A program made the translations under genes and the position numbers. From Lactobacillus melliventris (lineage in GTDB: Bacteria; Bacillota; Bacilli; Lactobacillales; Lactobacillaceae): a stretch of 64,000 bases of DNA. Shown in pieces: positions 48,598 to 64,000 of this stretch (within the stretch, counting starts at the first letter, position 1; each line of letters opens with the position of its first letter). Under the pieces are notes generated by a model, which worked only from the letters and a program-made list of their open reading frames with translations, was not told the origin of the DNA and searched no databases. The DNA is taken from the NCBI RefSeq assembly GCF_013346935.1, contig NZ_JAAEEB010000006.1:1-64000 (forward strand), in the 5' to 3' direction.

Positions 48598-48660
48598 ACT
48601 TTATCTTTCTATTTAATACTTTATACTATCAGCTTTACTTAAAGCAATTACTATATTTAA

Positions 48661-49479
48661 TTATATCTTAGCGATAACTCCAAGGCCACCTAAAACAATA
48701 CATAGTATTAAAACAATAAAGATTGCTTTGGTTGATGTCATACCCTTTTTACCAAGAAGCCAGTAAACAAAGCCTACAACAGCTGCTGGCAATAATTTAG
48801 GAAGGATCATGTCCAAATTATTTTGAACATTCATAGTAACTTTACCAATTTGAGGTGCCCAGGCAAACTTAATGTTAACCATAGTAGCAACAAGGGCACC
48901 AACCATGAATACACCCAAAACAGTAGCGGAATCAGTTAAAGCATTTAAGCGGTCTCTCATGTCAGTAACTAGAGAAACACCTTTGTCATAAGCAAAGTGA
49001 AGTTGTTTCCAACGGAAGACACAGATCAAAAGGCAGGCAATAACCCAAATGATAACACCAACTGGGTTTCCTTGAGTTGCCATTGAAGCAGCTAAAGCAC
49101 CAAAAATAGTTGGAATTAAAGAAGCGAAGATAGAGTCACCGATTGCGGCAAATGAGCCCATTAAACCAACTTTAATACCAGTAACGGTGTCTTTTCCTTC
49201 AATACCTTCATTTTCCTCTACGGCAAGATCAAGACCAGTGATGATTGTATTAAAGAAGTTAGAAGTGTTAAAGAACTGCATGTGAGTCTTCATCATTTCC
49301 TTTAACTCAGGAGTATCATCGCCATAAATTTTTCTCAATTGCGGCAAAATAGTGTATAAATAGCCACTATTCTGCATTCTTTCATAGTTCCAGCCTAACT
49401 GGAAACCAAACAAAGATCTACGGTTAATTTGATTGAAGTCTTGTTCAGTTAATTTATATTTAGGTTTAGAGTTCGTCAT
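48661..49479 (-). CDS. PTS EIID component, mannose family (GalNAc/AgaD-like)
   Basis: A 272-residue membrane subunit with RRSLFGFQLGWNYERMQNSGYLYTILPQLRKIYG and TGIKVGLMGSFAAIGDSIFASLIP. The ATG at 49479, seven bases after AGGAGAG, overlaps the end of EIIC by 14 bases; a start at 49521 would lie far inside EIIC. Members next to AgaS usually transport N-acetylgalactosamine or galactosamine. Confidence 0.93.
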   Translation of the reverse strand: MTNSKPKYKLTEQDFNQINRRSLFGFQLGWNYERMQNSGYLYTILPQLRKIYGDDTPELKEMMKTHMQFFNTSNFFNTIITGLDLAVEENEGIEGKDTVTGIKVGLMGSFAAIGDSIFASLIPTIFGALAASMATQGNPVGVIIWVIACLLICVFRWKQLHFAYDKGVSLVTDMRDRLNALTDSATVLGVFMVGALVATMVNIKFAWAPQIGKVTMNVQNNLDMILPKLLPAAVVGFVYWLLGKKGMTSTKAIFIVLILCIVLGGLGVIAKI

Positions 49480-50389
49480 CAGTAATCTCTCCTTCATCGT
49501 CATCAGAGCTTGAACTTGCACTATTACTTTGACTTTCAGTACTTTGTGCTTGCGCAGTACCTTTATTTATTGGAATATTCTTGTAATGCAAAATTGCAAG
49601 AGCTAATCCCAGCATTGCAATTGCAAGCATTGGCAAGCCGTTGAAAATAGTAGTAAAGCCTTTGTTAACAGCTGATAAGCCTGTACCCAAAGCTTGCATA
49701 CCACTAAAGAGAACTGAGAACAATGTCGTAATTGTAAAGCCCAGAATCAAATATGCTGCATGTCTCTTAACTGGCAAGTACCGGAGCAAAACAGCAAAAC
49801 CAACTGCTGGTAATGTGGCACCAGCAACAGTCAAACCATTACCAAGCCATAACAGATCTCCATTTAAAGCATTTGCGATCTGCTGTACTAATCCCTGACC
49901 AAAGGCCAATGCGATAAAGACAGGAACAGCACGTGAAAGTGACCACGGAATTGCACCGTATAAAACATTTCTTTCAACTGCCTTATAGTTAATCTTGTCT
50001 TGATCAATCAAGTGATCAATTCTGTGTGAAAAGTAGGTGTTGGCAAACCTTGCCAAAACGTCCAATTCAATCATAATAGCAGCAACTGGAACAGCAATTG
50101 AAGAAATAGCTGTTTGAGGACTCATACCTTTAATACTAGTTGAAAATGCTGTAGCTAAAACTGTACCAGTAGTAGCGTCAATTCTTGAAGCACCACCAAA
50201 AGTACCGATACCTAAAACTGTCAACTGCATTGATGCACCGATAAACAGACCGGTAGGCAGATCTCCCATGATCAGACCGGCGATCAACCCAGCACCAACT
50301 GGTGTGTTTAATGATGAATAAATTTGCAATTCATCTAAAATTTCTAATCCTGCATACAACGTAAGCAGTAATATTTGCCACCAAGCCAT
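49466..50389 (-). CDS. PTS EIIC component, mannose family (GalNAc/AgaC-like)
   Basis: A 307-residue polytopic subunit with TPVGAGLIAGLIMGDLPTGLFIGASMQLTVLGIG and GGASRIDATTGTVLATAFS. The C-terminal ~30 residues are a Ser/Asp-rich acidic tail (SNSASSSSDDDEGEITDDEL). Overlaps EIID; ten bases after EIIB. Confidence 0.93.
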   Translation of the reverse strand: MAWWQILLLTLYAGLEILDELQIYSSLNTPVGAGLIAGLIMGDLPTGLFIGASMQLTVLGIGTFGGASRIDATTGTVLATAFSTSIKGMSPQTAISSIAVPVAAIMIELDVLARFANTYFSHRIDHLIDQDKINYKAVERNVLYGAIPWSLSRAVPVFIALAFGQGLVQQIANALNGDLLWLGNGLTVAGATLPAVGFAVLLRYLPVKRHAAYLILGFTITTLFSVLFSGMQALGTGLSAVNKGFTTIFNGLPMLAIAMLGLALAILHYKNIPINKGTAQAQSTESQSNSASSSSDDDEGEITDDEL

Positions 50390-50399
50390 TTTTCTCCTC

Positions 50400-50888
50400 C
50401 TACTTCATCTTTTCATTAATCAATTTCATTAAATCCCGTGACTCAACACTAGGATTTAATTGGGCAATTAAGTTAACGCCTTTGCCAGAAATCTCTCTGA
50501 AAACATCGGCTTCATGCTCATTGATATTAACTTGCTTAGTCAATTCAGTAGTATCATCTTGTTTAGACATGTTACCAACATTGATTGTGTCCAGCTTAAT
50601 ACCCATGTTAAGCAATTCAAGAAACTTATCTGGTTTCTTAGCTACCAAAAACAGTCTCTGCTTGCCATAACGTTCTTTCTTCAGGTGATCAGCAGCTATT
50701 TCAGTTGGTAAAACACTTAGCTTAGTAGTCATAGGTGTAGCCATTCTCAAGCCGCTTTTTTGGATGTCATCCTTAGCTGCCTTCTCATCAAGAACAATAA
50801 TCCGTTCTACTTGCAACTGAGGTGTCCACAAGTTTGCCACCTGACCATGAACCAAGCGTTCATCAACTCTCGCTCCTACAATATTCAT
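50400..50888 (-). CDS. PTS EIIB component, mannose family (GalNAc/AgaB-like)
   Basis: A 162-residue subunit with the active-site histidine in VDERLVHGQVANLW and VERIIVLDEKAAKDDIQK. First gene of the four-gene PTS operon, after TGGAGGA. Its promoter and cre site are just upstream. Confidence 0.94.
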   Translation of the reverse strand: MNIVGARVDERLVHGQVANLWTPQLQVERIIVLDEKAAKDDIQKSGLRMATPMTTKLSVLPTEIAADHLKKERYGKQRLFLVAKKPDKFLELLNMGIKLDTINVGNMSKQDDTTELTKQVNINEHEADVFREISGKGVNLIAQLNPSVESRDLMKLINEKMK

Positions 50889-50928
50889 ATTTCTTCCTCC
50901 ATATCTTTTAAGGAAATCTAAATATTAA

Positions 50929-50942
50929 CAAAAACGCTTTCA
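50929..50942. promoter_or_regulatory. cre-like site of the GalNAc-type PTS operon
   Basis: On the minus strand TGAAAGCGTTTTTG matches the cre consensus at 12 of 14 positions (last two differ). It lies immediately downstream of the -10 of the operon promoter, where bound CcpA would block initiation. Confidence 0.65.
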
Positions 50943-50948
50943 ACCCTA

Positions 50949-50977
50949 ATATTAAGGTACCAACCAATTTTTGTCAA
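50949..50977 (-). promoter_or_regulatory. Promoter of EIIB-C-D-A operon
   Basis: Perfect -35 TTGACA (50972-50977) and -10 TAATAT (50949-50954) on the minus strand, 17 bases apart. A cre follows at the start site. Confidence 0.82.
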
Positions 50978-50988
50978 TATATATTTTG

Positions 50989-51004
50989 GTATATTTAAAA
51001 TACC
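50989..51004. promoter_or_regulatory. Candidate GntR operator upstream of the PTS promoter
   Basis: Inverted repeat GGTAT-n6-ATACC, 12 bases upstream of the -35. HutC-type GntR regulators often bind GGTnn/nnACC repeats, and such a regulator is encoded two genes upstream. A related but differently spaced repeat lies at 52979-52996. Confidence 0.45.
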
Positions 51005-51052
51005 TTTTTTTGAAAACATAATTATACTTTTTTCAATAACAACAAAAGCATA

Positions 51053-52219
51053 CTAATGAAATTCGTGAATTGTGACTCCTTTAACCACACGATTAACCGT
51101 GCCTGTTGGAGAAGGTGTATCCGGCTTATTATTAACTTTGATTGAGGTTAACAAAGCAATTGTTTGACCAAACATTACATCGGGTAAAGCCAAATATGCA
51201 TCTGGCAACAATTCTTTCTCAGCAAACGTAAATGATTTACCTGAGAAGTTTTGTCCTTCTTTCTCCTGCCCCACGGCCATCACTAGCGGTACAATTTCGT
51301 CATCTTTAATTTCGTTTAAAATGTCCAAATCATATTGTCTGGTATAAGTATTATTTGAAACAAAATCAAAAACAATCGTCTTTTTGTCCAAAAATGACTT
51401 AGGGCCATGACGTAAGCCCATTGATGTATCAAATAGTGCTGCCACTTCTCCTGCAGTTAATTCCAAAATCTTAAGTCGCGTTTCTTCAGCAAGACCTCCT
51501 AAACTGCCACTTCCTATATAAGTAATACGATTAAAGTCAGTATCAACTAAAGATTGAATTTCATCTTCACGGTCAATGACGCTTTTACCCATCTGAGCAA
51601 TTTGCTTAACAATCTGCTCTTTTTGCTCATCTGACAATGTATCAAAAACAAGCAGTGCCATTAAGCTCATGCAGGAAAATGAGCCTGTCATGGCAAACCC
51701 CTGATCTAGTGACTTTTCCGGCATTAATAAAACTAATCCAGAAGGGTCACCTTTTAAGTCTTGTGCCAAGTGGCCTTCTGGTGCACAAGTAATCGCTACT
51801 TGATATAAATTTTTAACTAACTTTTTAGCTAACTCTACAGTTGCTACAGATTCCGGTGAGTTACCACTGCGAGCAAATGATACCAGAATTGTAGGAGTAT
51901 CTTTTGCCAAATAATCTTCCGGAGTAGATACAATTTTAGTAGTATCAATAGCTTCAAAGTCATACCTTGTTCTGTCACCATGCTTTTGTAAATATGGCAT
52001 AATCGTATTCCCAACATATGCACTAGTACCGGCACCAGTGAAAATAACTCTGACTTTGCCGCATTTTTGCTTTATTTCGTCTAAAAATTCGGTAATTTTC
52101 GCCTTGTTATTCTGATAAATTGACCATGTTTGTCCCCATAATTCAGGCTGCTGTTCAATTTCGCGAGTAGTAATTTTAGCGCCCATTTTCTCTAATTCTG
52201 CATCTGTTTTTGAAAACAT
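51053..52219 (-). CDS. agaS: AgaS-family SIS protein, galactosamine-6-phosphate deaminase/isomerase
   Basis: A 388-residue two-SIS-domain enzyme. VIFTGAGTSAYVGNTIMPYL and VSFARSGNSPESVATVELAK form the first SIS site; ITYIGSGSLGGLAEETRLKILELTAGE and GLRHGPKSFLDKKTIVFDF the second. AgaS (called GnbE in Lactobacillus casei) converts galactosamine 6-phosphate to tagatose 6-phosphate and ammonia. Next to EIIABCD and with LacD in the window, it makes GalNAc or galactosamine catabolism the likely role. It follows the GntR gene by 23 bases. Confidence 0.9.
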   Translation of the reverse strand: MFSKTDAELEKMGAKITTREIEQQPELWGQTWSIYQNNKAKITEFLDEIKQKCGKVRVIFTGAGTSAYVGNTIMPYLQKHGDRTRYDFEAIDTTKIVSTPEDYLAKDTPTILVSFARSGNSPESVATVELAKKLVKNLYQVAITCAPEGHLAQDLKGDPSGLVLLMPEKSLDQGFAMTGSFSCMSLMALLVFDTLSDEQKEQIVKQIAQMGKSVIDREDEIQSLVDTDFNRITYIGSGSLGGLAEETRLKILELTAGEVAALFDTSMGLRHGPKSFLDKKTIVFDFVSNNTYTRQYDLDILNEIKDDEIVPLVMAVGQEKEGQNFSGKSFTFAEKELLPDAYLALPDVMFGQTIALLTSIKVNNKPDTPSPTGTVNRVVKGVTIHEFH

Positions 52220-53239: not shown

Positions 53240-54037
53240 TTAATTGATATTCGTTCCCCACACCAATAGCTGACTTAGAGAAGGAAAAGCTTCACTACCA
53301 TTCGCAGCCTTACACAAATGGTTGACTTTTAAATAACTGCTTTTCTTTTTTACTACGGAAAAATACTGAATTTTATCTGTCTTTTCTAAATTTAATGTTA
53401 TAGTTGCTCCATCAGAAAACGTAATATCTGCTTTAGTCCAATAATTATCATGAGGAAAGTCCGCACGCAAAAGAATACCAATTTTTTTAACCAACACTTC
53501 ACGGCCAAAATCTAATTTTAATTCAGCATCATCTCTTTGGTCTATTCCCCATGACTGAAAAGGAAACCGACCGTGTCCTTTATTTGCTAAATAACCATCA
53601 ATCACATTTTTAGCTAAAAAGGCATCTTCATTTCTGGTCTCTGCATTGGCAGTAACATGAGGAAAGGCTCCACTATTTTGGTGCTGATCGTGTGAATTAT
53701 ATGCCAGGTTCTGTTCTCTTAATATTTCTTCTGTTGTTGCCTCTCGGACGTAGGCATAATGAGCAATCCCTCCAAAAGAACCATCTGCCATAGCAGGGTA
53801 GCGTTGAAAATTAAAGGGAATATTATACCGCCAGTGCTTGCCCTGAATATATATTAATGCTGGATTTAAAATAGGATCAAGCTGAACAACTATATATGAA
53901 TTAGGCTTTTCTAATTCAATTTCATAATAATCCCCCAATTGATATCTTTTTTTAAACACAAGAACTGTAATATCATCTTGCATTTGTTCCAATAATACCT
54001 TATCTTCTGCATCTTTTAAGCTAACCTTTATTCGCAT
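53240..54037 (-). CDS. Discoidin (F5/8 type C)-like protein, cytosolic
   Basis: A 265-residue protein whose second half (about 125-262) resembles discoidin/CBM32 modules: AKNVIDGYLANKGHGRFPFQSWGIDQRDDAELKLDFGREVLVKKIGILLR, KADITFSDGATITL, ending QLLVWGTNIN. The N-terminal ~100 residues form an unassigned beta-rich domain. There is no signal peptide. It overlaps kdgK by ten bases at the end of the glycosaminoglycan operon, so it is likely to bind or act on an internalised uronic-acid oligosaccharide; no catalytic function can be named. Family recognition is by pattern only. Confidence 0.6.
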   Translation of the reverse strand: MRIKVSLKDAEDKVLLEQMQDDITVLVFKKRYQLGDYYEIELEKPNSYIVVQLDPILNPALIYIQGKHWRYNIPFNFQRYPAMADGSFGGIAHYAYVREATTEEILREQNLAYNSHDQHQNSGAFPHVTANAETRNEDAFLAKNVIDGYLANKGHGRFPFQSWGIDQRDDAELKLDFGREVLVKKIGILLRADFPHDNYWTKADITFSDGATITLNLEKTDKIQYFSVVKKKSSYLKVNHLCKAANGSEAFPSLSQLLVWGTNIN

Positions 54038-55002
54038 TTATTATTTTTCCTCATAAATTGTTCTAATTGACTTACATTAGGATAGCCATCGTTATCACCA
54101 CGAGACTGAATAGCTAACGAGCCAATTGCGCAAGCTCTTTTTACAGATCGCTTTATTTCTAAGCCAGAAATCAAGCCTGAGATTAGTCCCACTGCAAAAC
54201 CGTCTCCAGCACCAACAGTATCAACTATTTTATCTGTCTGATATCCTTTTACATATCCACTAGAACCGCTGCTAGTTTGGTAATAGGCACCTTTAGCTCC
54301 TAATTTAACAACTACTAATTTTGTGATATCACTTTTACTTAAATAAAAACTAGCAATTTCTTTTGGATCAGAAGTACCAGTTAATATTTTTCCCTCATTG
54401 CTTCCAGGCAGAACAACTTTAGACTGAAATGATAAATCATTGAGGACTCTAATCATTTTTTCTTTATCGTGCCAAAGAGACATGCGAATATTAGGATCGA
54501 AAAAACTAATAACTTCCTGTTTTTCAGCTTCAGTCAAAATCTTTTCAGTTAAATGTAAAGTACTAGTTGATAACGCAGCTAAAATACCTGTCACATGAAC
54601 TGCCTGAAAATCTGAAATGTTAATTTTTGCCAGGTCTGCACAACACAAATGTGAAGCAGCAGAATTTTTACGACAATATGAAACTTGCGGATCTCCCTTT
54701 GACACTAACTCCTTAAAGTAAAATCCCGTAGGCCATTCCTCATCCTGTCGCAAATATCTTATATCTATTTCTTGCTTTCGCATAAATTTGACAATTTTTT
54801 TGCCTAAAAGATCTTTACCCACATTTGATAAATATGTCGTTTTTATTCCTAACTTTTCGAGACCAACAGCGACATTTAGCTCTGCACCAGAAGGAAACGT
54901 TGTGAAATTCTCAGAATCAATCAATGATTGGTCTATGTCTCTAGAGCTAAACACAATCATTGGCTCACCTACCGTTAAAACTTTATTTTTTTGAGACTCC
55001 AT
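54028..55002 (-). CDS. kdgK: 2-dehydro-3-deoxygluconokinase (KDG kinase)
   Basis: A 324-residue PfkB-family kinase phosphorylating KDG to KDPG. LTVGEPMIVF at the N terminus, FPSGAELNVAVGLEKLG, YFKELVSKGDPQVSYCRKNSAAS and the catalytic VDTVGAGDGFAVGLISG are typical of KdgK. ATG at 55002 follows GGTGA. A terminator lies between kduD and this gene, so its expression may be lower than that of the genes before it. KDPG aldolase, the next enzyme, is not in the window. Confidence 0.9.
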   Translation of the reverse strand: MESQKNKVLTVGEPMIVFSSRDIDQSLIDSENFTTFPSGAELNVAVGLEKLGIKTTYLSNVGKDLLGKKIVKFMRKQEIDIRYLRQDEEWPTGFYFKELVSKGDPQVSYCRKNSAASHLCCADLAKINISDFQAVHVTGILAALSTSTLHLTEKILTEAEKQEVISFFDPNIRMSLWHDKEKMIRVLNDLSFQSKVVLPGSNEGKILTGTSDPKEIASFYLSKSDITKLVVVKLGAKGAYYQTSSGSSGYVKGYQTDKIVDTVGAGDGFAVGLISGLISGLEIKRSVKRACAIGSLAIQSRGDNDGYPNVSQLEQFMRKNNKCE

Positions 55003-55019
55003 TATTTTCACCAATAAAA

Positions 55020-55038
55020 AAGCGGCATTTAAGCCGCT
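55020..55038 (-). terminator. Intra-operon terminator between kduD and kdgK
   Basis: Perfect stem AAGCGGC / GCCGCTT with a five-base loop and, on the minus strand, a TTTTTT run. It lies 10 bases after the kduD stop and 17 bases before the kdgK start. It may attenuate expression of kdgK and the discoidin-like gene, or protect the upstream mRNA. Confidence 0.85.
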
Positions 55039-55048
55039 TCATAGTATC

Positions 55049-55864
55049 CTATCTTACTAAATAACCACCATCAACTGGTAAAATAATACCATTGACATAA
55101 TTTGAAGCAGCACTAGCTAAGAAAACTGCCACTCCCATCAATTCTGAAGGTTCTGCCCAATGACCAGCTGGAATACGATCTAGAATTTCCTTGTTGCGAT
55201 CTTTATCAGCACGAATTGGGGCGGTATTAGCTGTTTTAATATAGCCTGGTGCAATAGCATTAACCTGAATATTGTAAGCACCTAACTCACTAGCAAAAGA
55301 TTTAGTAAGTCCTGCAACCCCATGCTTTGAAGCAGTATATGATGGTATAAATTTACCACCTTGGAAGGATAGCATAGAACCAATGTTTATAATTTTTCCG
55401 GACTTTTGCTTTGCCATTACCTTAGCTGCTGCCATTGACATATGGTAAACTGCATTCAAGTTAATATTAATAACTTTGTCCCAATCTTCGTCTTTTGATT
55501 CTAGTAAAGGATTACGTCTAATCATACCTGCATTATTAATTAAAATATCAATATGACCAAAAGTTTCTAGTACTTTATCTATTACCTGTTGAGGAACGCC
55601 TGGCTTAGTCAAGTCAACATCCATAAACTCTACTTTACGGCCGCGTTTTTCAATCATTGCACGAGTATTATCCCATTCAAGTGTACCGAAAGTAGGAATA
55701 AATATATCGGCTCCTGCTTCTGCTAAAGCAACGGCATAACCTTGACCTAATCCTGTATTACCGCCAGTAATAACGGCAACCTTTCCTGTTAGATCAAAAA
55801 AGCTCATCTTAAATTTATCTAATGCTTTTTCGTTATTTTTAATTTCTTCTTTTGATTGTTCCAT
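55049..55864 (-). CDS. kduD: 2-deoxy-D-gluconate / 2-dehydro-3-deoxy-D-gluconate 5-dehydrogenase (SDR)
   Basis: A 271-residue short-chain dehydrogenase. Cofactor motif GGNTGLGQGYAVALAEAGA, NNAG in DILINNAGMIRRN, and catalytic Ser-Tyr-Lys in NIGSMLSFQGG and YTASKHG. KduD reduces 2,5-diketo-3-deoxygluconate to KDG. It comes 11 bases after kduI and before kdgK, the canonical order. The N-terminal extension of ~25 residues before the Rossmann fold is charged. Confidence 0.93.
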   Translation of the reverse strand: MEQSKEEIKNNEKALDKFKMSFFDLTGKVAVITGGNTGLGQGYAVALAEAGADIFIPTFGTLEWDNTRAMIEKRGRKVEFMDVDLTKPGVPQQVIDKVLETFGHIDILINNAGMIRRNPLLESKDEDWDKVININLNAVYHMSMAAAKVMAKQKSGKIINIGSMLSFQGGKFIPSYTASKHGVAGLTKSFASELGAYNIQVNAIAPGYIKTANTAPIRADKDRNKEILDRIPAGHWAEPSELMGVAVFLASAASNYVNGIILPVDGGYLVR

Positions 55865-55875
55865 TTTGTCCTCTT

Positions 55876-56715
55876 TTAATTTAAATCTTCCATTGGAATT
55901 GTATCCATATCATCATAAGTTTGATTTTCACCAGCCATAGCCCAGATAAAAGCATAATTTGCTGTTCCGACTCCACAGTGAATTGACCAGCTAGGATTGA
56001 TTACAGCTTGTTCATTTCTAATAACAATTTCCTTAGTTTCATGCGGCTTACCCAAAATGTGGAACACTCGGGTATCTGGTGAAGCAAACTCACAATATAA
56101 ATAAGCTTCCATACGTCTGGCGTGAGTATGCGCAGGCATTGTATTCCAGCCTGAGCCACTATCTAGAACTGTATACCCCATTTGTAATTGGCAGGTATCC
56201 ATCTGGCTGGCATCAATATATTTATAAATAGTACGCTTATTCATATGCTCCTGATCACCTAAACGTTTCTTAAGAGCATTCTTAAACAACAACTTTTTAT
56301 TAGGATACGTTTTTTGAGCAGGTGTTGATACTACGTAATATTTTGCCGGCTCTTTTGGATTAGCAGAAGTGAACACCACATGCTTATTTCCTTTACCAAT
56401 GTAAAAGCCATCATGTTTTGTCATTTGTTCTTTTTGACCATCAATTTCTAATGCACCATCGCCTCCTAGATTAATAATTCCTAATTCACGTCTTTGCAAA
56501 AAGTAGTCAACTCCTAAGTCCTTATCTAGAACTATTTCCAATGGCTTATCAGTTGGCATTACTCCGCCAAGAATCATTCGATCATTAAAAGTGTAGGTCA
56601 AATTGATTTTTCCGGGTTCAAATACTTTTTCTACCAAAAACTGATCTCTTAATTCTGAAGTTGAATAGTTTTTTATATCTTCAGGGTTATGACCATAATT
56701 AATATTCATTTTCAT
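55876..56715 (-). CDS. kduI: 4-deoxy-L-threo-5-hexosulose-uronate ketol-isomerase
   Basis: A 279-residue cupin-fold isomerase converting 5-keto-4-deoxyuronate, formed spontaneously from unsaturated uronate, to 2,5-diketo-3-deoxygluconate. The family N-terminus is present (NINYGHNPEDIKNYSTSELRDQFLVEKVF), and the zinc-binding segment reads TMPAHTHARRMEAYLYCEF with the two histidines and glutamate, and SIHCGVGTANYAFIW. It follows the secreted beta-helix gene by 23 bases. Confidence 0.94.
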   Translation of the reverse strand: MKMNINYGHNPEDIKNYSTSELRDQFLVEKVFEPGKINLTYTFNDRMILGGVMPTDKPLEIVLDKDLGVDYFLQRRELGIINLGGDGALEIDGQKEQMTKHDGFYIGKGNKHVVFTSANPKEPAKYYVVSTPAQKTYPNKKLLFKNALKKRLGDQEHMNKRTIYKYIDASQMDTCQLQMGYTVLDSGSGWNTMPAHTHARRMEAYLYCEFASPDTRVFHILGKPHETKEIVIRNEQAVINPSWSIHCGVGTANYAFIWAMAGENQTYDDMDTIPMEDLN

Positions 56716-56738
56716 AAAAATAAAAGCCTTTCTTTATA

Positions 56739-58316
56739 TTACTTAAATTCTAATGGTCCAATTGAAGGATTAATTGAAATGGGATTACCAGCAAAATCTG
56801 TAATATTACTTGCTATAGTAGTACCAGCTTTCTGTAATTCTGATATTTGTAATAACTCAGCGATATTCAAATTATTTATCCCTGAATCACTATCCTGAAT
56901 ATCAGAAAGTAATTTTTCTACCAGTACGGGATTTTGTAATTTAATATTATCGCCACTTGTGAACCACTTATCATTAAAACCATAAGTAGCGTTATTACAA
57001 ATATTAATATCACCAGTCATGTCGTCATAATTGAATGTTTTTAGCTTTTCCGATTTAGAAATAATGACGTTATTTACAAACCTCAAAGTCCGTTTTTTAG
57101 AACTTGTTTTAAATATTTCAGCCGTATTTGGATTAGTAATAAAAAGGTTATTATAAATATCCACTTTTTCAGCATTGTCTTTAGGTAGATAAGAAATCAA
57201 TTTATTATTATCCCAACCATCATTGACGCTGACGTTATATCGAAATACCCCGTTTTTAGAATAATTCATAAACAGCACTGTACCACGAGCATTATCATGA
57301 GAATAATTGTGTTGGACAATAACATTATTGCAGTTTAAATCAATATCAAACGCAGTACCGTCATTAGAACCATATTTTCCGTTGGCAACTTCATTTCTTT
57401 CAACTACAACGTTGTCTGAGGACATTACCCACAGTCCAGCGTAGTTATAACTAGTATTTGCATTACAAAATTTATTAACTATATTATTTTTTACAATACC
57501 ATCACTAGCAACCTCAGAAATAATCAATCCATCGCCAAACACATCGTCAACTTTATTGTTTTCATACCTAATATTTTTATTTAGCTTAGGGTAACTTTCT
57601 GAACCATTAGAATAAAGCATCGTAGTTTTGTTTCTAATTCCAGCTGTTGCTACATTTTTAACTTGATTACTTGTGACCGAAACATTTTGAAAGCCAAAGT
57701 TCTTATTATTATTTATTTTGCCATTGAGATCTTCATTGATACCAATCAGTATGATTCCACCAGTTACTTTCCAGGCATGATCTACCTGTGTGTCAGAATT
57801 AACATCATGGACAAAATTGTTAGCAATTGTAATATTTTTTTCTGGTGTATTTCCGTTATTAATAACTAAAATTCCTGACCTCTGAGAATGAACTTGTGAA
57901 CTATAATTTGTAACTTCTAAGTTGCTTATCACCCAATCATGCTGATTAATAAGCATTACAGTTCCAGAATTTCTAACATAATTTGAAGTACCATTGCCGT
58001 TGATACGAGGTTTTTCTTTTCCCCCGTACTTATTTATTTCAATTGGGTGATTTTCATTGCCACTTCCTTTAGGATGAAGCTGGCCGTTCCATTCAGCACC
58101 GCTCTTAAAAAGGATTTTATCGCCAGGTAAAAATTGAACAGAATTAACTTTAGCAAGTGTTTTCCACGCATAATTTCTACTTATGCCGCTATTTGAATCC
58201 GATCCTTTAGGATCAACATAATAAGTAGCTGCTTTAACATTCGTCTGTGTAAATGCAATTCCTAAAATAGCTATGGCAAATGTTAAAATGAAACAAAAAA
58301 TTTTCTTTTTTTTCAT
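56739..58316 (-). CDS. Secreted right-handed beta-helix protein, candidate glycosaminoglycan lyase
   Basis: A 525-residue exported protein. The signal peptide (about 1-30) ends NVKAA; then YYVDPKGSDSNSGISRNYAWKTLAKVNSVQFLPGDKILFKSGAEW, the start usual in pectin-lyase-like polysaccharide-active proteins, and roughly 12 beta-helix rungs with Asn-rich turns (NNFVHDVN, NNKVDDVFGDG, ENEVANGKYGS-like, NNLFITNP). Chondroitinase B/alginate lyase (PL6) and PL9 share this fold; I cannot identify a catalytic Lys/Arg with confidence. It is the only exported enzyme in the operon, so it probably starts attack on the external polymer. No wall anchor. Confidence 0.7.
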   Translation of the reverse strand: MKKKKIFCFILTFAIAILGIAFTQTNVKAATYYVDPKGSDSNSGISRNYAWKTLAKVNSVQFLPGDKILFKSGAEWNGQLHPKGSGNENHPIEINKYGGKEKPRINGNGTSNYVRNSGTVMLINQHDWVISNLEVTNYSSQVHSQRSGILVINNGNTPEKNITIANNFVHDVNSDTQVDHAWKVTGGIILIGINEDLNGKINNNKNFGFQNVSVTSNQVKNVATAGIRNKTTMLYSNGSESYPKLNKNIRYENNKVDDVFGDGLIISEVASDGIVKNNIVNKFCNANTSYNYAGLWVMSSDNVVVERNEVANGKYGSNDGTAFDIDLNCNNVIVQHNYSHDNARGTVLFMNYSKNGVFRYNVSVNDGWDNNKLISYLPKDNAEKVDIYNNLFITNPNTAEIFKTSSKKRTLRFVNNVIISKSEKLKTFNYDDMTGDINICNNATYGFNDKWFTSGDNIKLQNPVLVEKLLSDIQDSDSGINNLNIAELLQISELQKAGTTIASNITDFAGNPISINPSIGPLEFK

Positions 58317-58344
58317 CTTTGTTCACCTCTTTTTGACTTTAAAA

Positions 58345-60234
58345 CTACTCCTCAACACTGATGTTGCCATAAAAAGGAATATTATTTACAAAATATAACT
58401 TATTTCCTTTAATGGTATTTTCATGTTGAATATTAACAGTTATCGGCTTTCTTCCATTCAAAGAAATAACTATTCCGTAGTTATGGATATCGCTTGTATC
58501 AACCTTGCCATTCCTCATTGAGTCCACATGGTTAACACCTGCAATAACCTCTTTTTTACCAATTACAGTGTAAGAAACATTACTATTATTAAAATTATCA
58601 GAAATAATCAGTTTCGAAGTTTGCTGGATCTGATTATATCTATCTGAAAGTAATTGCCTTTGTATTTCAACTTGTTTTGAAGAATGAAATAAATAGTATT
58701 CATTTTGGTTAATACTAATTTTAATTTGGTTTTGTGTTATTTCCTTTACTTGAGATACTGGATTTAAAATCCAATTATTGCTTTGCAAGTGCTGGCCAGA
58801 ATCTTCGACAATATCCACAATAACCATAACTGCAACAGTCTTAATCCAGATAAAATACCTTGTCACAATGTAATTTATCTTCTTATCCACATAAGTACAT
58901 TTGACACTGTCAAAGGTTTTAAAATGGGCTACTTCATTTCTCTGGTTTGAAACTACCGTACTAAATTTCCAAGAATTTAGTGGTACAGTAGGAAAAGTAT
59001 TATCCACTAAAATAACATTATGTGAAAAGCCTGACTTCAAATATCTACGCTCATGCGAATTGACATATGTATACCTTCCAGGATCAAGAAATATATCATC
59101 ATCATTAATTACCAAGTCTAAATGACCGGAAGAAGCATGACCGTGTCCGCTTCCTAAATTACCGTTATAAATGTGCCAATAATTCTTGTTATTAGTATCT
59201 TTAAAGAAAAAGTTTCCTGAAGTAATCGAATCAAAATATCTAATTTCATCTAATTTTTTTTGGCCTAAAGTTATTTCTGCTTTATCTGCCAAAGAAATCA
59301 GTAAAAAATCATATTTATAATTCGAATTGAATTTGCCAGTTAAAATATATTCTGCTGTTGCAACTAAGTCAGCTATTTTAATTGAATCAGTATCTCCCTG
59401 CTGTAAAAGATTGCCATTAGGTTTAATTAAAAATTTGCTTGCTTTAAGCATTCTTTTTAATACATTCGTAATTTCTGCAGGAACAAACTTTTTATTAGCC
59501 TTAAAACTAGCAACAACTGATAATGAGCTTCTAAATACTTCAATGAAGTACAGTGGTGATTGCTCCCATTGAAGGCCCGTCTCATCTACTTGCAGTTTTA
59601 ACTCTTGAATTAACTTATCTAAGGCCCAATTTGAAATTTGATTATCTATTATATTAGGGTGTTCAGCAGAAAAGGCTAGTATACCAGTGGTTATTAGTAC
59701 TCCCCAATTACTTAGATCATACTTTTCAATATAATTATCTTCCAAATACTTAGCTTGACGCTTGACTGATTGATTAATTTGGCTTTTTTCTTCCGCACTA
59801 ACGATATTCCTACTAATTAAATAGCTAAGGGGCTTTGACCAATTTAACAGCCTTATCCCGGTATCAATTGTGCGCCAAGTCTTATAACGAGCTGAATCGT
59901 CTGTATCATTATTTTGTATCCAGTCAAAGAAAAATGTTTTTATTTTAAATAAATACTCACTCTCATTTGTCCGAAGATAAGAATACAAAAGATCCTGTAA
60001 ATATTCTTGACGCTTTAAAACATAAAGCCACTCGGGGTCACCGTTAGGAGACTCCTGCCAACTATTTAATTGATATACTTCAGGGCTAGGCTCCATATCG
60101 TACACATGTTGAAAACGAAATTGATTATTCAATAATAATTTTGCGTTGTCTAAATAGTCTTTTGCATATGAAATCCTATCATCATGAATCAAACTATTTA
60201 AATTTATTTTTTCTTTTAGATTATTTGGTTTCAT
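58345..60234 (-). CDS. Heparinase II/III family polysaccharide lyase, cytosolic
   Basis: A 629-residue lyase. The N-terminal (alpha/alpha) toroid covers about 1-330 (KTWRTIDTGIRLLNWSKPLSYL, NWGVLITTGILAFSAEHP, QWEQSPLYFIEVFRSSL) and the antiparallel beta domain the rest, with the heparinase II/III signature around GSGHGHASSGHLDLVINDDDIFLDPGRYTYV. The Tyr/His/Asn set expected of PL12/PL21-type lyases is present in these segments. No signal peptide, so it acts on oligosaccharides after PTS uptake, as HepC-like enzymes in streptococci. It overlaps the YajC-like gene by 14 bases, with no strong ribosome site of its own. Confidence 0.9.
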   Translation of the reverse strand: MKPNNLKEKINLNSLIHDDRISYAKDYLDNAKLLLNNQFRFQHVYDMEPSPEVYQLNSWQESPNGDPEWLYVLKRQEYLQDLLYSYLRTNESEYLFKIKTFFFDWIQNNDTDDSARYKTWRTIDTGIRLLNWSKPLSYLISRNIVSAEEKSQINQSVKRQAKYLEDNYIEKYDLSNWGVLITTGILAFSAEHPNIIDNQISNWALDKLIQELKLQVDETGLQWEQSPLYFIEVFRSSLSVVASFKANKKFVPAEITNVLKRMLKASKFLIKPNGNLLQQGDTDSIKIADLVATAEYILTGKFNSNYKYDFLLISLADKAEITLGQKKLDEIRYFDSITSGNFFFKDTNNKNYWHIYNGNLGSGHGHASSGHLDLVINDDDIFLDPGRYTYVNSHERRYLKSGFSHNVILVDNTFPTVPLNSWKFSTVVSNQRNEVAHFKTFDSVKCTYVDKKINYIVTRYFIWIKTVAVMVIVDIVEDSGQHLQSNNWILNPVSQVKEITQNQIKISINQNEYYLFHSSKQVEIQRQLLSDRYNQIQQTSKLIISDNFNNSNVSYTVIGKKEVIAGVNHVDSMRNGKVDTSDIHNYGIVISLNGRKPITVNIQHENTIKGNKLYFVNNIPFYGNISVEE

Positions 60235-60508
60235 TTTTTATTTTCGAAGCTATCCCGTGCTTATTGACTTTGACTACAGTATTATCTGTTACTTTTAAAT
60301 CGACATAATTTTTTGTTATGTTTTTTATAGTACCGACAACACCACTAAGCAGCATAACTTTTTCACCTTCATGTAGTGAAGCAAAAAAGTTATCCATCTC
60401 TGCCTTTTTCCTTTCATTGCTTTTTTTTCTGGCAATAGGAATAATAACAAAATAAAGAACTACCAAGATAATTACCATAATGGTTATTAAAATATTGATC
60501 CAGTTCAC
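60221..60508 (-). CDS. YajC-like membrane protein of the glycosaminoglycan locus
   Basis: A 95-residue protein with a single N-terminal transmembrane helix (ILITIMVIILVVLYFVIIPIARKKS) and a cytosolic KOW-like segment EGEKVMLLSGVVGTIKNI, the YajC signature. The housekeeping YajC assists SecDF, but a second yajC between EIIA/EIID and the heparinase gene is a standing feature of glycosaminoglycan clusters in streptococci. Its role there is unknown. GTG start three bases after the EIIA stop; overlaps the lyase gene. Confidence 0.88.
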   Translation of the reverse strand: MNWINILITIMVIILVVLYFVIIPIARKKSNERKKAEMDNFFASLHEGEKVMLLSGVVGTIKNITKNYVDLKVTDNTVVKVNKHGIASKIKNETK

Positions 60509-60510
60509 TA

Positions 60511-60939
60511 TTAGGACTCTTTTTCTAAATCTTGCTTACATGAGATCTCTTTCATTAATGATTTTGATTCATTAATTACGTGCTTAATTTCATTGTCAAT
60601 ATTTTGAGTGTTCAACTGCTCAGACATGTTTTTCAGATATATATCCAAAACTAAATTTAAAGAAACACCAGCTACTATAAATTTGTGTACATCATTTTGT
60701 AATAAAACTTTTTTAGCTACGATTTGGTATGGTGCACCGCCAACCATATCAGCAAAGAAAATTACATTCGTATGTAATTGAATATAGTGATCAACATTTT
60801 GCTCAAATTGCTCATGAGTAGTTTCTTCATTTAAATTAAAGCAGGTGATTCTATCGCAAGTTCCTGCAATTAATTTGACAGCCGATTTAAGGCCCGAAGG
60901 AAAATTACCATGTCCTATGATACATACATCATATTTCAT
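60511..60939 (-). CDS. PTS EIIA component, mannose family (glycosaminoglycan disaccharide)
   Basis: A 142-residue subunit; the phosphorylated histidine is in VCIIGHGNFPSGLKSAV and the second motif in FFADMVGGAPYQIVAKKV. It follows EIID by 11 bases. In homologous clusters this PTS imports unsaturated disaccharides of hyaluronan or chondroitin. Confidence 0.92.
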   Translation of the reverse strand: MKYDVCIIGHGNFPSGLKSAVKLIAGTCDRITCFNLNEETTHEQFEQNVDHYIQLHTNVIFFADMVGGAPYQIVAKKVLLQNDVHKFIVAGVSLNLVLDIYLKNMSEQLNTQNIDNEIKHVINESKSLMKEISCKQDLEKES

Positions 60940-60950
60940 AACTATTTACC

Positions 60951-61766
60951 TCAAGGAACTAATATGCCCATGGCTGAAAGTGCAATTCCTAAGACTAAAA
61001 GTAAAAGTATAATCTTATAAACTGTCCACTTTTTCTTGGTAATTAACCAATAAACAAAGTAAATTAGTAATACAGGCAATAGGTACGGCATGATTTTGTC
61101 TAAAAATGCCTGCACTGTTACTAGTTGGGTCTTACCTTTGATTACAGCAGAGTATTTTAAGCCTAAATTTACTTTAACAAATGAAACAGATAACCCGGCA
61201 ATAACTGTCAGACCAATTGTACTGGCAATATCAGCTATAACAGCCATCTTGTCACTCAGAGTATCAATGATACTAGTACCGACTTTCCAGCCCAAGTAAC
61301 CCATTAAACATCTAACACCAAATGTAATTCCAAATAAGCAGGCAAAGAACATTAATGGTGCATAAATAATGCCTTGTAAAGCAAGTGAGGCAAATATAGT
61401 TGAAAACAATGGTGCCAAGGCAAATTGTGATAACGCATCACCGATACCTGCTAAAGGTCCCATTAAAGCCATCTTAATTGCTTGCACATCACTTTCACTT
61501 TGACCACTATCATACATAGCCAGCATAATGCTGGTAACAAAAGGATAAGGTTGTGGGTTAGTGTTATAAAACTCTAAGTTAGAAATAGCTACACGTCTAA
61601 ACTCTTGTTCATCATCCTGATAGATTTTATGTAACTCTGGCCAAATAGATTTTAAAACTCCTGTTCCCTGCATATTGCCGTAGTTCTGGACATTTTGCAG
61701 ATAATATGATCTTAAAATAGATATGGCATAATCTTTTTTAGTTAAAACTGGTTTCCTAGATGCCAT
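60951..61766 (-). CDS. PTS EIID component, mannose family (glycosaminoglycan disaccharide)
   Basis: A 271-residue subunit with SYYLQNVQNYGNMQGTGVLKSIWPELHKIYQDD and VQAIKMALMGPLAGIGDALSQFALAPLFSTI (GPLAGIGD motif). The start overlaps the EIIC stop by 11 bases; ribosome site GGAGG inside EIIC. Confidence 0.93.
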   Translation of the reverse strand: MASRKPVLTKKDYAISILRSYYLQNVQNYGNMQGTGVLKSIWPELHKIYQDDEQEFRRVAISNLEFYNTNPQPYPFVTSIMLAMYDSGQSESDVQAIKMALMGPLAGIGDALSQFALAPLFSTIFASLALQGIIYAPLMFFACLFGITFGVRCLMGYLGWKVGTSIIDTLSDKMAVIADIASTIGLTVIAGLSVSFVKVNLGLKYSAVIKGKTQLVTVQAFLDKIMPYLLPVLLIYFVYWLITKKKWTVYKIILLLLVLGIALSAMGILVP

Positions 61767-62538
61767 TTTCTACACCTCCATTGTTTTGCTCTTGATGATT
61801 ACTACCAGATTTTTTACGATTGTAGTAATTGTTAAATGCTAAGGCTACACCTACAAATGCAAGACCAATAACCGGCATCTTAAGGTAAGCAACGCAGATA
61901 TATCCAACTATAATAGCTGGTATATATTCTTTTTTAAGCATGGTACTCATGATAAGAGCAAAACCAACAGCTGGAAGCAAACCACCGACAACTGTCAATC
62001 CATTCATCAACCATTGAGGAATCATCATAACAAATGCTCTTAAAGCTGATGTACTTAATGTAGCTGCTAGTCCAAACAGAAAAGCAAATAACATAAATTC
62101 CCACAAAGTTAAATTAGACATAATATTGAACTTATGATATTTTCCTTCACTAACGGCTTTTTTAGCAGAAGCCATTGAACCTGAGTTAATCGTGAAAATC
62201 AAAGTGATAATAAATGGTACTAACATAGCAAATGGATATGACAGAGTTAATGCTGCACTTGGCGATAATTTATGCATAGAAATTGCTAAAATTGAACCTA
62301 CAATACCAGGTCCAAGCGGATTAGGTGGAGTAGAACCTCCAGGTCCAACACCAAAGCCCATAAATGCTAATTCAGCTGTAGCACCAAAAATAACTGCTGT
62401 CTTTAAGTCTCCTAAAATGAGGCCAACACCAAATGATATAAACAAAGCCCTATTTGTATAAGTGCCCCAAACTTGTCCTGCAAAACAAAATGCGGCCCAT
62501 AAACCTACCAATATAGCCTGCCAAACGGTAAAGTTCAT
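61756..62538 (-). CDS. PTS EIIC component, mannose family (glycosaminoglycan disaccharide)
   Basis: A 260-residue polytopic subunit: FTVWQAILVGLWAAFCFAGQVWGTYTNRALFISFGVGLILGDLKTAVIFG and GPGGSTPPNPLGPGIVGSILAI. ATG at 62538, after AAAGGAG, is chosen; an upstream start at 62556 lies in EIIB. Two bases after the EIIB stop. Confidence 0.93.
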   Translation of the reverse strand: MNFTVWQAILVGLWAAFCFAGQVWGTYTNRALFISFGVGLILGDLKTAVIFGATAELAFMGFGVGPGGSTPPNPLGPGIVGSILAISMHKLSPSAALTLSYPFAMLVPFIITLIFTINSGSMASAKKAVSEGKYHKFNIMSNLTLWEFMLFAFLFGLAATLSTSALRAFVMMIPQWLMNGLTVVGGLLPAVGFALIMSTMLKKEYIPAIIVGYICVAYLKMPVIGLAFVGVALAFNNYYNRKKSGSNHQEQNNGGVENGI

Positions 62539-62540
62539 AT

Positions 62541-63050
62541 TTATTCTCCTTTCCAATCATCAACATATTTATTTAAATTAAAATCTGATCCTACTTCGTT
62601 TCCAATCGGAGTTACGCGGGTATTAAAATCAATCTGATATTTATCTCTCATTGTTTTAAAAGCCGTCATATCTTCCTTGTCTACCGAAATATAATTTGTA
62701 ACTTTAGTTTTTCCATCTTTAAAATGAATATTTCCCACATTTAATTTCTTAATTGGTACGCCTCCTTCAACTAGTTTTAACGTGTCAGCTGCAGTTTTAA
62801 CAATTATAAAAATTGACTGCTGAGGTGCTGCCTTAAAAATCTTGTCAATAGTTTCTGCAATTGTAAAAAATCTAACCCCGATTGAGTCAGGTAATAGTGA
62901 CTTCATCAGAGTTTGCTGAATTGAACTTTTAGCAACTTCATCATTTGCAACTATGACCAAATTAACTCCTAAATTAGAAATCCATAATCTGCCCTGGCCA
63001 TGAATTAATCTTTCATCCAAACGGACAGCTACAATATTTGGATTCGTCAT
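62541..63050 (-). CDS. PTS EIIB component, mannose family (glycosaminoglycan disaccharide)
   Basis: A 169-residue subunit with the histidine in LDERLIHGQGRLW and NLVIVANDEVAKSSIQQTL. It follows the glucuronyl hydrolase gene by 15 bases, giving the order ugl-EIIB-EIIC-EIID-EIIA-yajC-lyase known from streptococci, though with EIIA placed between EIID and yajC. Confidence 0.93.
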   Translation of the reverse strand: MTNPNIVAVRLDERLIHGQGRLWISNLGVNLVIVANDEVAKSSIQQTLMKSLLPDSIGVRFFTIAETIDKIFKAAPQQSIFIIVKTAADTLKLVEGGVPIKKLNVGNIHFKDGKTKVTNYISVDKEDMTAFKTMRDKYQIDFNTRVTPIGNEVGSDFNLNKYVDDWKGE

Positions 63051-63065
63051 TTCTTTCGCCCTTTT

Positions 63066-64000
63066 CTACCAAAATACTTTCCAGTCTTCATAAAATCTCA
63101 TAAGTGCTTCAAAATAAAAATAGTCTCCCCAAATATTTCCTTCATCAACTCCTTTACCTGAATGCCAAGAGTACACACCATGATTTAGTAATGGTGCACC
63201 AGGCTTCAAATCATTATTTGCATAATTATCAATTAAAGATCTCAACATTTTATGCAGTAACAATACATATTCGTACTTGTTGCTAAAAGATTCAGGTAAA
63301 TGTTTTAGCATTTCAGCAATTCCACAAATTGCTATAGCACCAGATGAAGAATCTTTAGGTTGATTATCACCATCATTAAAGATCAAATCCCAGTACGGAA
63401 TAAAATCCTTAGGCAACCTATTTAAAAAATAGTTAGTTACGCCTCTAAAAAGTTTAAAATCTTCCTGTTTGTGACGATATTTATAGTGTAAAGGAATACC
63501 ATAAACGGCCCAGGCTTGTCCTCTGGCCCAACTTGAATCATCACTATATCCTTGTTTGGTCATACCTTTTAAAGGTCTACCATTTTGTTTATCAAAGTAA
63601 TATGTATGATAAGTTGAGCCATTATCCCTAATAACAGTATTAATAACATTTTGGTAATGTTGATCAGCAATTTTACCGTATTTAAAATTCCGTGTGACCT
63701 GTTCAGCCCAATAAAGTAAAGGAATGTTCATTAAAGAATCAATGATTAGTCTATATTCATTGTTATCATTTAGATCACCCCAAGCTTGAATAAATCCACC
63801 ATTAGGTTGAAACCTTGAGACCAGGCAATCAGCAGCCTTCAAGGCTATTTGTCTGGCGTTTTCACTTCCAGTAATTTTGAAATCACTAACTACCGAAGTC
63901 GTATATAAAAAGCCTAAGTCATGATGATTGACTGCAATCTTTTGACTAATTCTTTTTTCAAATGAGTCAACGTTTTTTTCTGCAATCCTTTTATATTTAG
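63066..64000 (-). CDS. ugl: Unsaturated glucuronyl hydrolase (GH88), cut by the window edge
   Basis: At least 311 residues of a GH88 enzyme that removes the unsaturated uronate from disaccharides made by lyases, by hydration of its double bond. The frame stays open to the window end, so the true start is beyond 64000; a TTG at 63842 is internal. Visible signatures are NHHDLGFLYTTS (containing the conserved aspartate), AWGDLND with the second catalytic aspartate region, GYSDDSSWARGQAWAVYG, and the C-terminal HSGKGVDEGNIWGDYFYFEALMRF. No signal sequence can be judged. Confidence 0.93.
   Translation of the reverse strand, partial: KYKRIAEKNVDSFEKRISQKIAVNHHDLGFLYTTSVVSDFKITGSENARQIALKAADCLVSRFQPNGGFIQAWGDLNDNNEYRLIIDSLMNIPLLYWAEQVTRNFKYGKIADQHYQNVINTVIRDNGSTYHTYYFDKQNGRPLKGMTKQGYSDDSSWARGQAWAVYGIPLHYKYRHKQEDFKLFRGVTNYFLNRLPKDFIPYWDLIFNDGDNQPKDSSSGAIAICGIAEMLKHLPESFSNKYEYVLLLHKMLRSLIDNYANNDLKPGAPLLNHGVYSWHSGKGVDEGNIWGDYFYFEALMRFYEDWKVFW

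What the first reader, a model, noticed from the sequence alone, without database searches (positions are those of the whole stretch)
53240..64000. Glycosaminoglycan utilisation locus in a Lactobacillus
ugl, EIIBCDA, yajC, heparinase II/III, kduI, kduD and kdgK match the streptococcal hyaluronan/chondroitin locus. Here the external enzyme is a beta-helix protein in place of the usual hyaluronate lyase, and the lyase is cytosolic. No KDPG aldolase is present, so it lies outside the window or another aldolase serves. The locus suggests adaptation to host connective or mucosal matrix.
Basis: partly seen in the sequence, partly recalled or inferred. Interest (0 to 1): 0.65.

Follow-up and report, generated by a model that had tools for sequence, protein, structure and literature searches.

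The report
Lactobacillus glycosaminoglycan-type operon, unusual secreted enzyme
This Lactobacillus carries a known kind of gene set for eating acidic animal-type sugars such as chondroitin or hyaluronan, but the usual secreted cutting enzyme appears to be replaced by a different protein, related to enzymes that cut milk and mucus sugars.

Summary
Twelve genes with gaps of 34 bp or less encode ugl, PTS EIIB-C-D-A, yajC, a heparinase-like protein, a secreted beta-helix protein, kduI, kduD, a PfkB kinase and an unknown protein. The "missing" KDPG aldolase lies 1.2 kb past the window edge, divergent from an IclR-type regulator. Such clusters are published for L. rhamnosus and L. casei (PMC6045597), so the locus as a whole is not new.

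The unusual part is the beta-helix protein, a distant relative of GH136 lacto-N-biosidases. It keeps both catalytic aspartates, but the galactose-stacking tryptophan is a methionine. Related loci in the genus carry other secreted proteins: a PL8 hyaluronate lyase in one genome, an alginate-lyase-like protein in another. The beta-helix sits in the locus of four genomes, none with PL8. The two named relatives, W8174 and ESL0679, are probably bee-gut strains, so vertebrate mucosa is unlikely. Favoured reading: the beta-helix protein cuts unsulfated chondroitin or hyaluronan outside the cell; hydrolase or lyase is undecided, and no substrate is shown.

The parts
63066..64000 (-). ugl: GH88 unsaturated glucuronyl hydrolase (cut by the window end; whole gene is contig C6 63066-64244, 392 aa)
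   Evidence: PF07470 over cut-off; 514 bits over 377 residues to S. agalactiae UGL 2zzr/3anj; D109, D169 and S359-x-x-S362-x-K364 present (their roles recalled)
62541..63050 (-). PTS EIIB, mannose/Aga family
   Evidence: NCBIfam galactosamine/GalNAc IIB models 157-160 bits, below cut-off 180
61756..62556 (-). PTS EIIC
   Evidence: PF03609 2e-61; best NCBIfam model AgaW, 170.9 below its cut-off 300
60951..61766 (-). PTS EIID
   Evidence: PF03613 1.9e-73
60511..60939 (-). PTS EIIA
   Evidence: PF03610 2e-11
60221..60508 (-). YajC-like small membrane protein
   Evidence: PF02699 2.4e-14; TIGR00739 55.9 against cut-off 44.2
58345..60234 (-). Hep: PL12-like heparinase II/III protein, no signal peptide seen in the sequence (cytosolic lyase, inferred)
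   Evidence: PF16889, PF07940; profile of 8 relatives matches heparinase III 4mmi at 4.3e-24; N176, Y229, H364 invariant in the 8
56739..58316 (-). secreted right-handed beta-helix protein, GH136-related; inferred extracellular depolymerase; D319 and D326 align with the GH136 acid/base and nucleophile
   Evidence: N-terminal hydrophobic signal-like segment seen in the sequence
55876..56715 (-). kduI: 5-dehydro-4-deoxy-D-glucuronate isomerase
   Evidence: NF002091 400.9 against cut-off 250
55049..55864 (-). kduD: 2-dehydro-3-deoxy-D-gluconate 5-dehydrogenase
   Evidence: NF005390 463.9 against 369; TIGR01832 343.3 against 338.85
54028..55014 (-). kdgK-like PfkB sugar kinase
   Evidence: PF00294 8.2e-53; KDG-kinase model below cut-off
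53240..54037 (-). conserved protein of unknown family without a visible signal peptide
   Evidence: no Pfam, NCBIfam or PDB match; 40-79% identity to 7 aligned relatives from related clusters
51053..52219 (-). neighbour outside the operon: AgaS-family sugar isomerase; possible fate of the amino sugar
   Evidence: TIGR02815 427 bits, below cut-off 529

Best explanation
This is a uronate/amino-sugar operon of the known Firmicute glycosaminoglycan-cluster kind, in which the extracellular depolymerase has been exchanged. Proposed working: (1) the secreted GH136-related beta-helix protein cuts an unsulfated or low-sulfated chondroitin- or hyaluronan-type polymer at the beta-linked N-acetylhexosamine, giving short oligosaccharides (inferred). 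(2) The Aga-type PTS imports and 6-phosphorylates them (import of the unsaturated hyaluronan disaccharide is shown for the S. agalactiae homologue, PMC6837340; inferred here). (3) The cytosolic PL12-like Hep trims larger imports by beta-elimination, making unsaturated uronyl ends (inferred). (4) UGL releases the unsaturated uronate, and KduI, KduD, the PfkB kinase and KdgA turn it into pyruvate and glyceraldehyde 3-phosphate (established pathway; genes present). (5) The amino-sugar 6-phosphate is deacetylated by NagA and, if GalNAc, goes through the neighbouring AgaS and LacAB/LacD-type enzymes (inferred). The adjacent IclR-type protein is the likely local regulator (position only). My confidence in step 1 splits: extracellular depolymerase of this locus about 0.7; hydrolysis at the HexNAc bond, as in GH136, about 0.4.
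For: Gene content and tight spacing; kdgA and the IclR-type regulator next door. UGL closest among solved structures to S. agalactiae UGL, with the S-x-x-S-x-K pattern. Beta-helix: profile against PDB gives five lacto-N-biosidase (GH136) chains at 4.5e-58 to 2.4e-44, next an alginate lyase at 1.1e-5; Foldseek's first six are all lacto-N-biosidases, 7.8e-17 to 1.2e-14, next 6.2e-7; the catalytic pair D568/D575 of ErLnb136 (PMC7335108, passages) maps to D319/D326, invariant in the four Lactobacillus proteins. Exchange at related loci: beta-helix between hep and kduI in 4 genomes (own, G017, G010, G033); a PL8 hyaluronate-lyase protein with YSIRK signal and S-layer domains next to the EIIA gene of the G036 locus; a signal-bearing PF05426 protein beside the G035 locus; PL8 in 0 of the 4 beta-helix genomes. 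A Pedobacter homologue lies between SusD on one side and a GH2 and a GH88 on the other. AgaS (51053), LacD (41921) and LacA/LacB (contig 66136-67170) flank the operon and NagA is elsewhere in the genome.
Against: A GH136-type hydrolase would leave saturated uronate ends, which UGL does not use (recalled), and no beta-glucuronidase was identified: the one GH2 protein found scores 92 bits against a cut-off of 544 for beta-glucuronidase and is nearer to beta-galactosidase GalA (622 against 900). PTS import of anything larger than a disaccharide is not shown. PTS 6-phosphorylation would exclude 6-sulfated sugars (argued in PMC6837340), which sits oddly with a 6-sulfate motif in UGL. No dedicated tagatose-6-phosphate kinase was identified; the kinase at 40049 passes the 1-phosphofructokinase cut-off, not that of LacC. 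The beta-helix protein matches no Pfam family at 1e-3 and is far below the LnbX equivalog cut-off (60.2 against 2500). By Z alone AlgE epimerases score higher (35.1 against 32.8). The G010 and G033 stretches carry no kdgA or kdgK. Genomes G452, G057 and G165 have the intracellular set with no PL8 in the genome and no beta-helix in the fetched stretch, so the secreted enzyme can be missing altogether. A second Pedobacter homologue has no uronate genes around it. The tree places the beta-helix clade only weakly. No substrate was tested.
Confidence: 0.55

Rival explanations
1. The beta-helix protein is a polysaccharide lyase (beta-elimination) that has evolved on a GH136-like scaffold, directly releasing unsaturated disaccharides as PL8 does; Hep then only tidies longer imports.
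For: UGL, KduI and KduD work on unsaturated products (established pathway); many other beta-helix proteins are lyases: after the lacto-N-biosidases Foldseek lists rhamnogalacturonan and PL6 alginate lyases; another member of the genus has PL8 in its locus.
Against: The closest kin by sequence and by Foldseek are all lacto-N-biosidases, and both catalytic aspartates are kept; no Pfam family matches the window protein at 1e-3.
Confidence: 0.25
2. The operon targets a non-animal uronic-acid polymer or glycan (pollen arabinogalactan, bacterial exopolysaccharide) with uronate-capped side chains; the beta-helix protein frees them.
For: Probable bee-gut habitat of the named relatives, where pollen is a main polymer source (recalled). 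A GH88 accompanies the beta-helix in Pedobacter with SusD and GH2.
Against: UGL's closest solved relatives are S. agalactiae UGLs; the EIIB, EIIC and EIID genes share 48-52% identity with the set beside UGL and Hep in G047, whose genome also has PL8; a genus member has a PL8 hyaluronate lyase in its related locus.
Confidence: 0.15
3. The beta-helix protein is not a depolymerase of the same polymer but a mucin/N-glycan-type biosidase (a true lacto-N-biosidase-like enzyme) or an adhesin that happens to sit in the operon; the strain scavenges disaccharides made by others.
For: GH136 kinship; genomes G452, G165 and G057 have the intracellular set with no PL8 in the genome and no beta-helix in the fetched stretch, so scavenging looks workable.
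Against: The tryptophan that stacks on galactose in ErLnb136 (W548) aligns with M298; no operon gene looks like a LnbY/GH136I partner; the position between hep and kduI is kept in 4 of 4 genomes.
Confidence: 0.15

Closest known systems
Glycosaminoglycan genetic cluster of Lactobacillus rhamnosus / L. casei (PMC6045597: abstract, passages and one section seen)
   Same: UGL, PTS EII genes, a heparinase II/III gene (HepC), KduI and KduD, as described in the text
   Different: The passages seen name no beta-helix gene; here one lies between hep and kduI. I did not have that cluster's DNA; the unnamed loci L069 and L070, with the same ugl-EIIB-C-D-A-yajC-hep order, have no beta-helix
Streptococcal hyaluronan locus (S. 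pneumoniae SP0314-SP0330, PMC3302838, passages; S. agalactiae PTS, PMC6837340, passages)
   Same: UGL, mannose/Aga-type PTS, heparinase-like gene, KDPG pathway
   Different: No PL8 hyaluronate lyase found in the own genome; KduI/KduD where streptococci have DhuI/DhuD (per PMC6045597); IclR-type instead of LacI/GalR-type RegR regulator
GH136 lacto-N-biosidase (LnbX 5gqc, ErLnb136 6kqs, TnX 7v6m, BsaX 7v6i)
   Same: Right-handed beta-helix, shared sequence over most of the domain, both catalytic aspartates
   Different: W548 position is Met; no operon gene looks like a LnbY/GH136I partner; 60.2 bits against the LnbX cut-off of 2500; sits in a uronate operon

Membership tests
Firmicute glycosaminoglycan genetic cluster | GH88 unsaturated glucuronyl hydrolase | tested here: met
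Firmicute glycosaminoglycan genetic cluster | PTS EIIA, B, C, D of the Aga/mannose type | tested here: met
   (Pfam over cut-offs; NCBIfam Aga models below theirs)
Firmicute glycosaminoglycan genetic cluster | isomerase, reductase, kinase and aldolase for the unsaturated uronate | tested here: met
   KduI, KduD, KdgA over cut-offs; kinase by PfkB family and position only
Firmicute glycosaminoglycan genetic cluster | extracellular PL8 lyase (streptococcal form) | tested here: not met
   PF02278 not found in the own genome; rings in G036, G047 and G209 among 25 genomes
Firmicute glycosaminoglycan genetic cluster | growth on a glycosaminoglycan | not testable with these tools
   needs cultures
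GH136 | sequence and fold kinship to LnbX | tested here: met
GH136 | catalytic Asp pair seven residues apart | tested here: met
   D319, D326
GH136 | Trp that stacks on the galactose of lacto-N-biose (W548 of ErLnb136) | tested here: not met
   M298 in the window protein; alignment-based, numbering offset of 2 deduced from the catalytic pair
GH136 | GH136I/LnbY partner domain or gene | tested here: inconclusive
   no candidate among the operon genes by inspection; no search for it was run
GH136 | NCBIfam LnbX equivalog cut-off | tested here: not met
   60.2 bits against 2500
PL12 | profile kinship to heparinase III | tested here: met
   4mmi 4.3e-24, 5jmd 1.6e-19, 4fnv 6.9e-16; a single-sequence search found nothing at E 1
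PL12 | catalytic Asn, Tyr, His (which residues these are in heparinase III is recalled) | tested here: met
   N176, Y229, H364 invariant in 8 of 8 aligned sequences and aligned with Asn, Tyr, His of 4mmi
PL12 | heparan sulfate lyase activity | not testable with these tools
   needs assay

The most novel reading that the evidence does not exclude
The beta-helix protein founds a new specificity of the GH136 kind: a secreted hydrolase that recognises uronosyl-beta-1,3-HexNAc (the glycosaminoglycan counterpart of Gal-beta-1,3-GlcNAc) and cuts the beta bond of its HexNAc. It would act in series with a cytosolic PL12-type lyase, so that a Lactobacillus of insects eats chondroitin by hydrolysis outside and elimination inside.
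Probability: 0.25. Interest if true: 0.6.

Novelty: new variant of a known kind. Interest (0 to 1): 0.42.

Why it matters
Within one genus, related operons carry different secreted proteins: a PL8 hyaluronate lyase, an alginate-lyase-like protein, a GH136-like beta-helix, or none found. That makes the beta-helix protein a ready candidate for a new glycosaminoglycan-active enzyme. If the relatives' origin holds, it also raises a testable claim that bee-gut lactobacilli feed on host or dietary chondroitin-like polymers. The literature searches listed in Tried and rejected showed no report of either; a 2022 review (PMC9067506, passages) says that Gram-positive chondroitin sulfate loci had not yet been reported.

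Tried and rejected
PL8 in the own genome: one search was uninformative alone (no control rang); repeated with 25 genomes, where three others rang and the own genome did not. Sulfatases: three PF00884 hits with open frames of 740, 690 and 993 aa, sizes that fit lipoteichoic-acid synthases (recalled); these were not studied further and no glycosaminoglycan sulfatase is claimed. Beta-glucuronidase: one GH2 protein, 801 aa, nearer to beta-galactosidase models, none over its cut-off; other families with that activity were not searched. Hep model: mean pLDDT 50 from 3 sequences, not used for fold search. Beta-helix model: mean pLDDT 70 from 5 sequences; residues 447-525 are under 50. VIA-align does not by itself separate GH136 from other beta-helices; the case rests on sequence, on identity (26-28% against 8-17% in the 50 rows shown) and on aligned length. 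Promoter and terminator scans found no more than chance (48 against 50.9; 5 against 5.3). The exact cre pattern found nothing. Tree of 18 beta-helix domains: the four Lactobacillus proteins form one clade (100/100), deeper placing weak; second copies of the same genes and three distant rows (L014, L015, L023) were left out. The catalytic motif was seen in 14 of 21 proteins printed; the 7 misses (L014, L015, L023, L029, L030, L031, L033) were not studied. A first regex was wrong and was redone. Class-wide, the beta-helix profile matched 12 of 398 genomes at 1e-10, own included; I did not look at wider surroundings of the other eleven. I first took G165 and G057 for Lacticaseibacillus; the family numbering puts them in another family, so they are left unnamed here. 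That G047 and the other genomes of its genus are streptococci is likewise only my guess.

Literature for a GH136-like enzyme on glycosaminoglycans, or for such loci in bee bacteria: listings (12 of 12 listed; 20 of 202; 20 of 39; 20 of 94; 5 of 5; 2 of 2; 12 of 1,087; 6 of 6; 8 of 41) showed no such report; open-licence papers only.
Full report
What is there. The window is the first 64,000 bases of a 108.8-kb contig of a 2.01-Mb genome. On the minus strand, twelve genes from ugl to the gene ending at 53240 follow each other with gaps of at most 34 bp and several overlaps: ugl, EIIB, EIIC, EIID, EIIA, yajC, hep, a beta-helix gene, kduI, kduD, a PfkB kinase and a 265-aa protein of unknown family. 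Family searches support the names, the kinase only at family level. Just beyond the window lie an IclR-family regulator (contig 64336-65088, minus) and kdgA (65190-65840, plus).

Known kind. UGL scores 514 bits over 377 residues against S. agalactiae UGL and keeps the pattern S-x-x-S-x-K, which I recall as the 6-sulfate contact in that enzyme. Kawai et al. (PMC6045597; abstract, passages and one section seen) describe such clusters in L. rhamnosus and L. casei, show KduI and KduD activity, and cite a meeting abstract for heparin cleavage by recombinant HepC. The heparinase-like gene and the overall set are thus ordinary for this kind of locus.

The heparinase-like protein. A single-sequence search found no solved relative at E 1, but a profile of 8 relatives matches heparinase III at 4.3e-24. 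The aligned Asn, Tyr and His are invariant in all 8; that these are the PL12 catalytic residues is recalled. I see no signal peptide in the sequence; no predictor was run.

The beta-helix protein. It begins with a signal-like hydrophobic segment. Alone it finds three solved relatives at E 1 or better, at 8.4e-25 to 1.3e-15; two are named lacto-N-biosidase there, and the third is the lacto-N-biosidase TnX. A five-sequence profile gives 4.5e-58 to 2.4e-44 for five such chains, against 1.1e-5 for the next, a PL6 alginate lyase. Foldseek ranks six lacto-N-biosidase chains first. The acid/base D568 and nucleophile D575 of ErLnb136 (PMC7335108, passages) align with D319 and D326, while W548, which stacks on galactose, aligns with M298. 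So the catalytic pair looks kept and the sugar pocket changed.

Comparative evidence. UGL at E up to 1e-20 occurs in 7 of 75 genomes of the genus. Four of these (own, G017, G010, G033) carry a beta-helix gene of 62% identity or more to the own protein, between hep and kduI. In G036 the regulator is followed by kduI, kduD, kdgK-like, kdgA, an EIIA and then a 1217-aa PL8 protein with a YSIRK signal, hyaluronate-lyase domains and S-layer domains. In G035 a different PTS and an 825-aa protein with a signal-like start and an alginate-lyase domain (PF05426, 9.5e-11) precede the regulator and ugl, and only a broken C-terminal piece of hep remains. That 825-aa protein has no relative in the 12 other stretches searched. 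In G452 there is no PL8 in the genome and neither the beta-helix nor the 825-aa protein in the fetched stretches. G035 and G036 have no beta-helix in the genome at 1e-3. PL8 is absent from the four beta-helix genomes. This pattern of exchange is the best argument that the beta-helix protein fills the depolymerase role; it is not proof. A Pedobacter homologue (L021) sits after a SusD gene and before a GH2 and a GH88, which also ties the family to uronate-bearing polymers, though a second one (L022) shows no such enzymes among the neighbours searched.

Substrate. Flanking genes encode an AgaS-type isomerase, a tagatose-bisphosphate aldolase and LacA/LacB isomerases, and NagA is in the genome. 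These would carry GalNAc 6-phosphate into glycolysis and so favour chondroitin. But another PTS lies beside agaS and may be its real partner, and no dedicated tagatose-6-phosphate kinase was identified. PTS import needs a free C6 (PMC6837340, passages), which argues for unsulfated or 4-sulfated units. Heparan sulfate fits less well with a beta-HexNAc-cutting enzyme, because its glucosamine is alpha-linked (recalled).

Where it lives. The only named genomes found with the full locus are Lactobacillus sp. W8174 and sp. ESL0679. W8171 and W8172 are honeybee-gut Lactobacillus strains (PMC8729767, passages); W8174 itself is not in that text, and the origin of the ESL series is recalled. The window's own species was not identified. 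A bee-gut origin is therefore probable, not shown.

Open problem. If the beta-helix hydrolyses, its saturated disaccharide ends cannot enter through UGL, and no beta-glucuronidase was identified. Either longer oligosaccharides are imported and Hep supplies the unsaturated ends, or the beta-helix protein is really a lyase. An assay at 232 nm would settle this.

Noticed in passing
53240-54037 (and L010, L011, L012, L066-L070): A conserved 265-aa protein with a discoidin-like look (by eye) and invariant His/Asp motifs, no Pfam, NCBIfam or PDB match; seen in 9 of 10 related clusters (7 of the genus, G165, G057) and not in the 12.3-kb stretch L071 of G047.
   Followed up: partly
upstream of ugl, contig C6 64245-64335 (L002:1246-1336): A near-palindrome TTGTAAAATCGCTTACA (or TTTCA) before a TATATT-like stretch is kept in 4 of 5 aligned upstream regions; possible regulator or catabolite site, two bases longer than a standard cre (recalled).
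   Followed up: partly
L066:8706-9360 (G035): Remnant of hep: residues 461-627 at 44% identity with an internal stop, N-terminal part gone.
   Followed up: yes
L066:4045-6522 (G035): 825-aa protein with signal-like start and a PF05426 alginate-lyase domain, no PDB sequence match at 0.1, beside a GAG-type locus that lost its hep.
   Followed up: partly
L078:4947-8600 (G036): PL8 hyaluronate lyase with YSIRK signal and two SlpA domains, so probably held in the S-layer of a Lactobacillus.
   Followed up: partly
L010:13912-16166, L011:13348-15598, L012:13936-16186: EIIA (PF00359) and galactitol-type EIIC (PF03611) genes follow the locus in G017, with similar ORFs in G010 and G033; the window has only 280 bp between the operon and the next gene.
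   Followed up: no
43059-45908 (-), 46057-48126 (+), 48196-52219 (-): A GH31 protein with an fn3 domain, a 689-aa protein with no Pfam match, a second mannose-family PTS and agaS form a further sugar locus beside the GAG-type one.
   Followed up: no
L014:8756-15667 (G010), L015 (G033): Two of the beta-helix genomes carry another, distant beta-helix gene; in G010 it lies near a GH115 and a glucuronate isomerase gene, perhaps for glucuronoxylan (families searched in L014 only).
   Followed up: no
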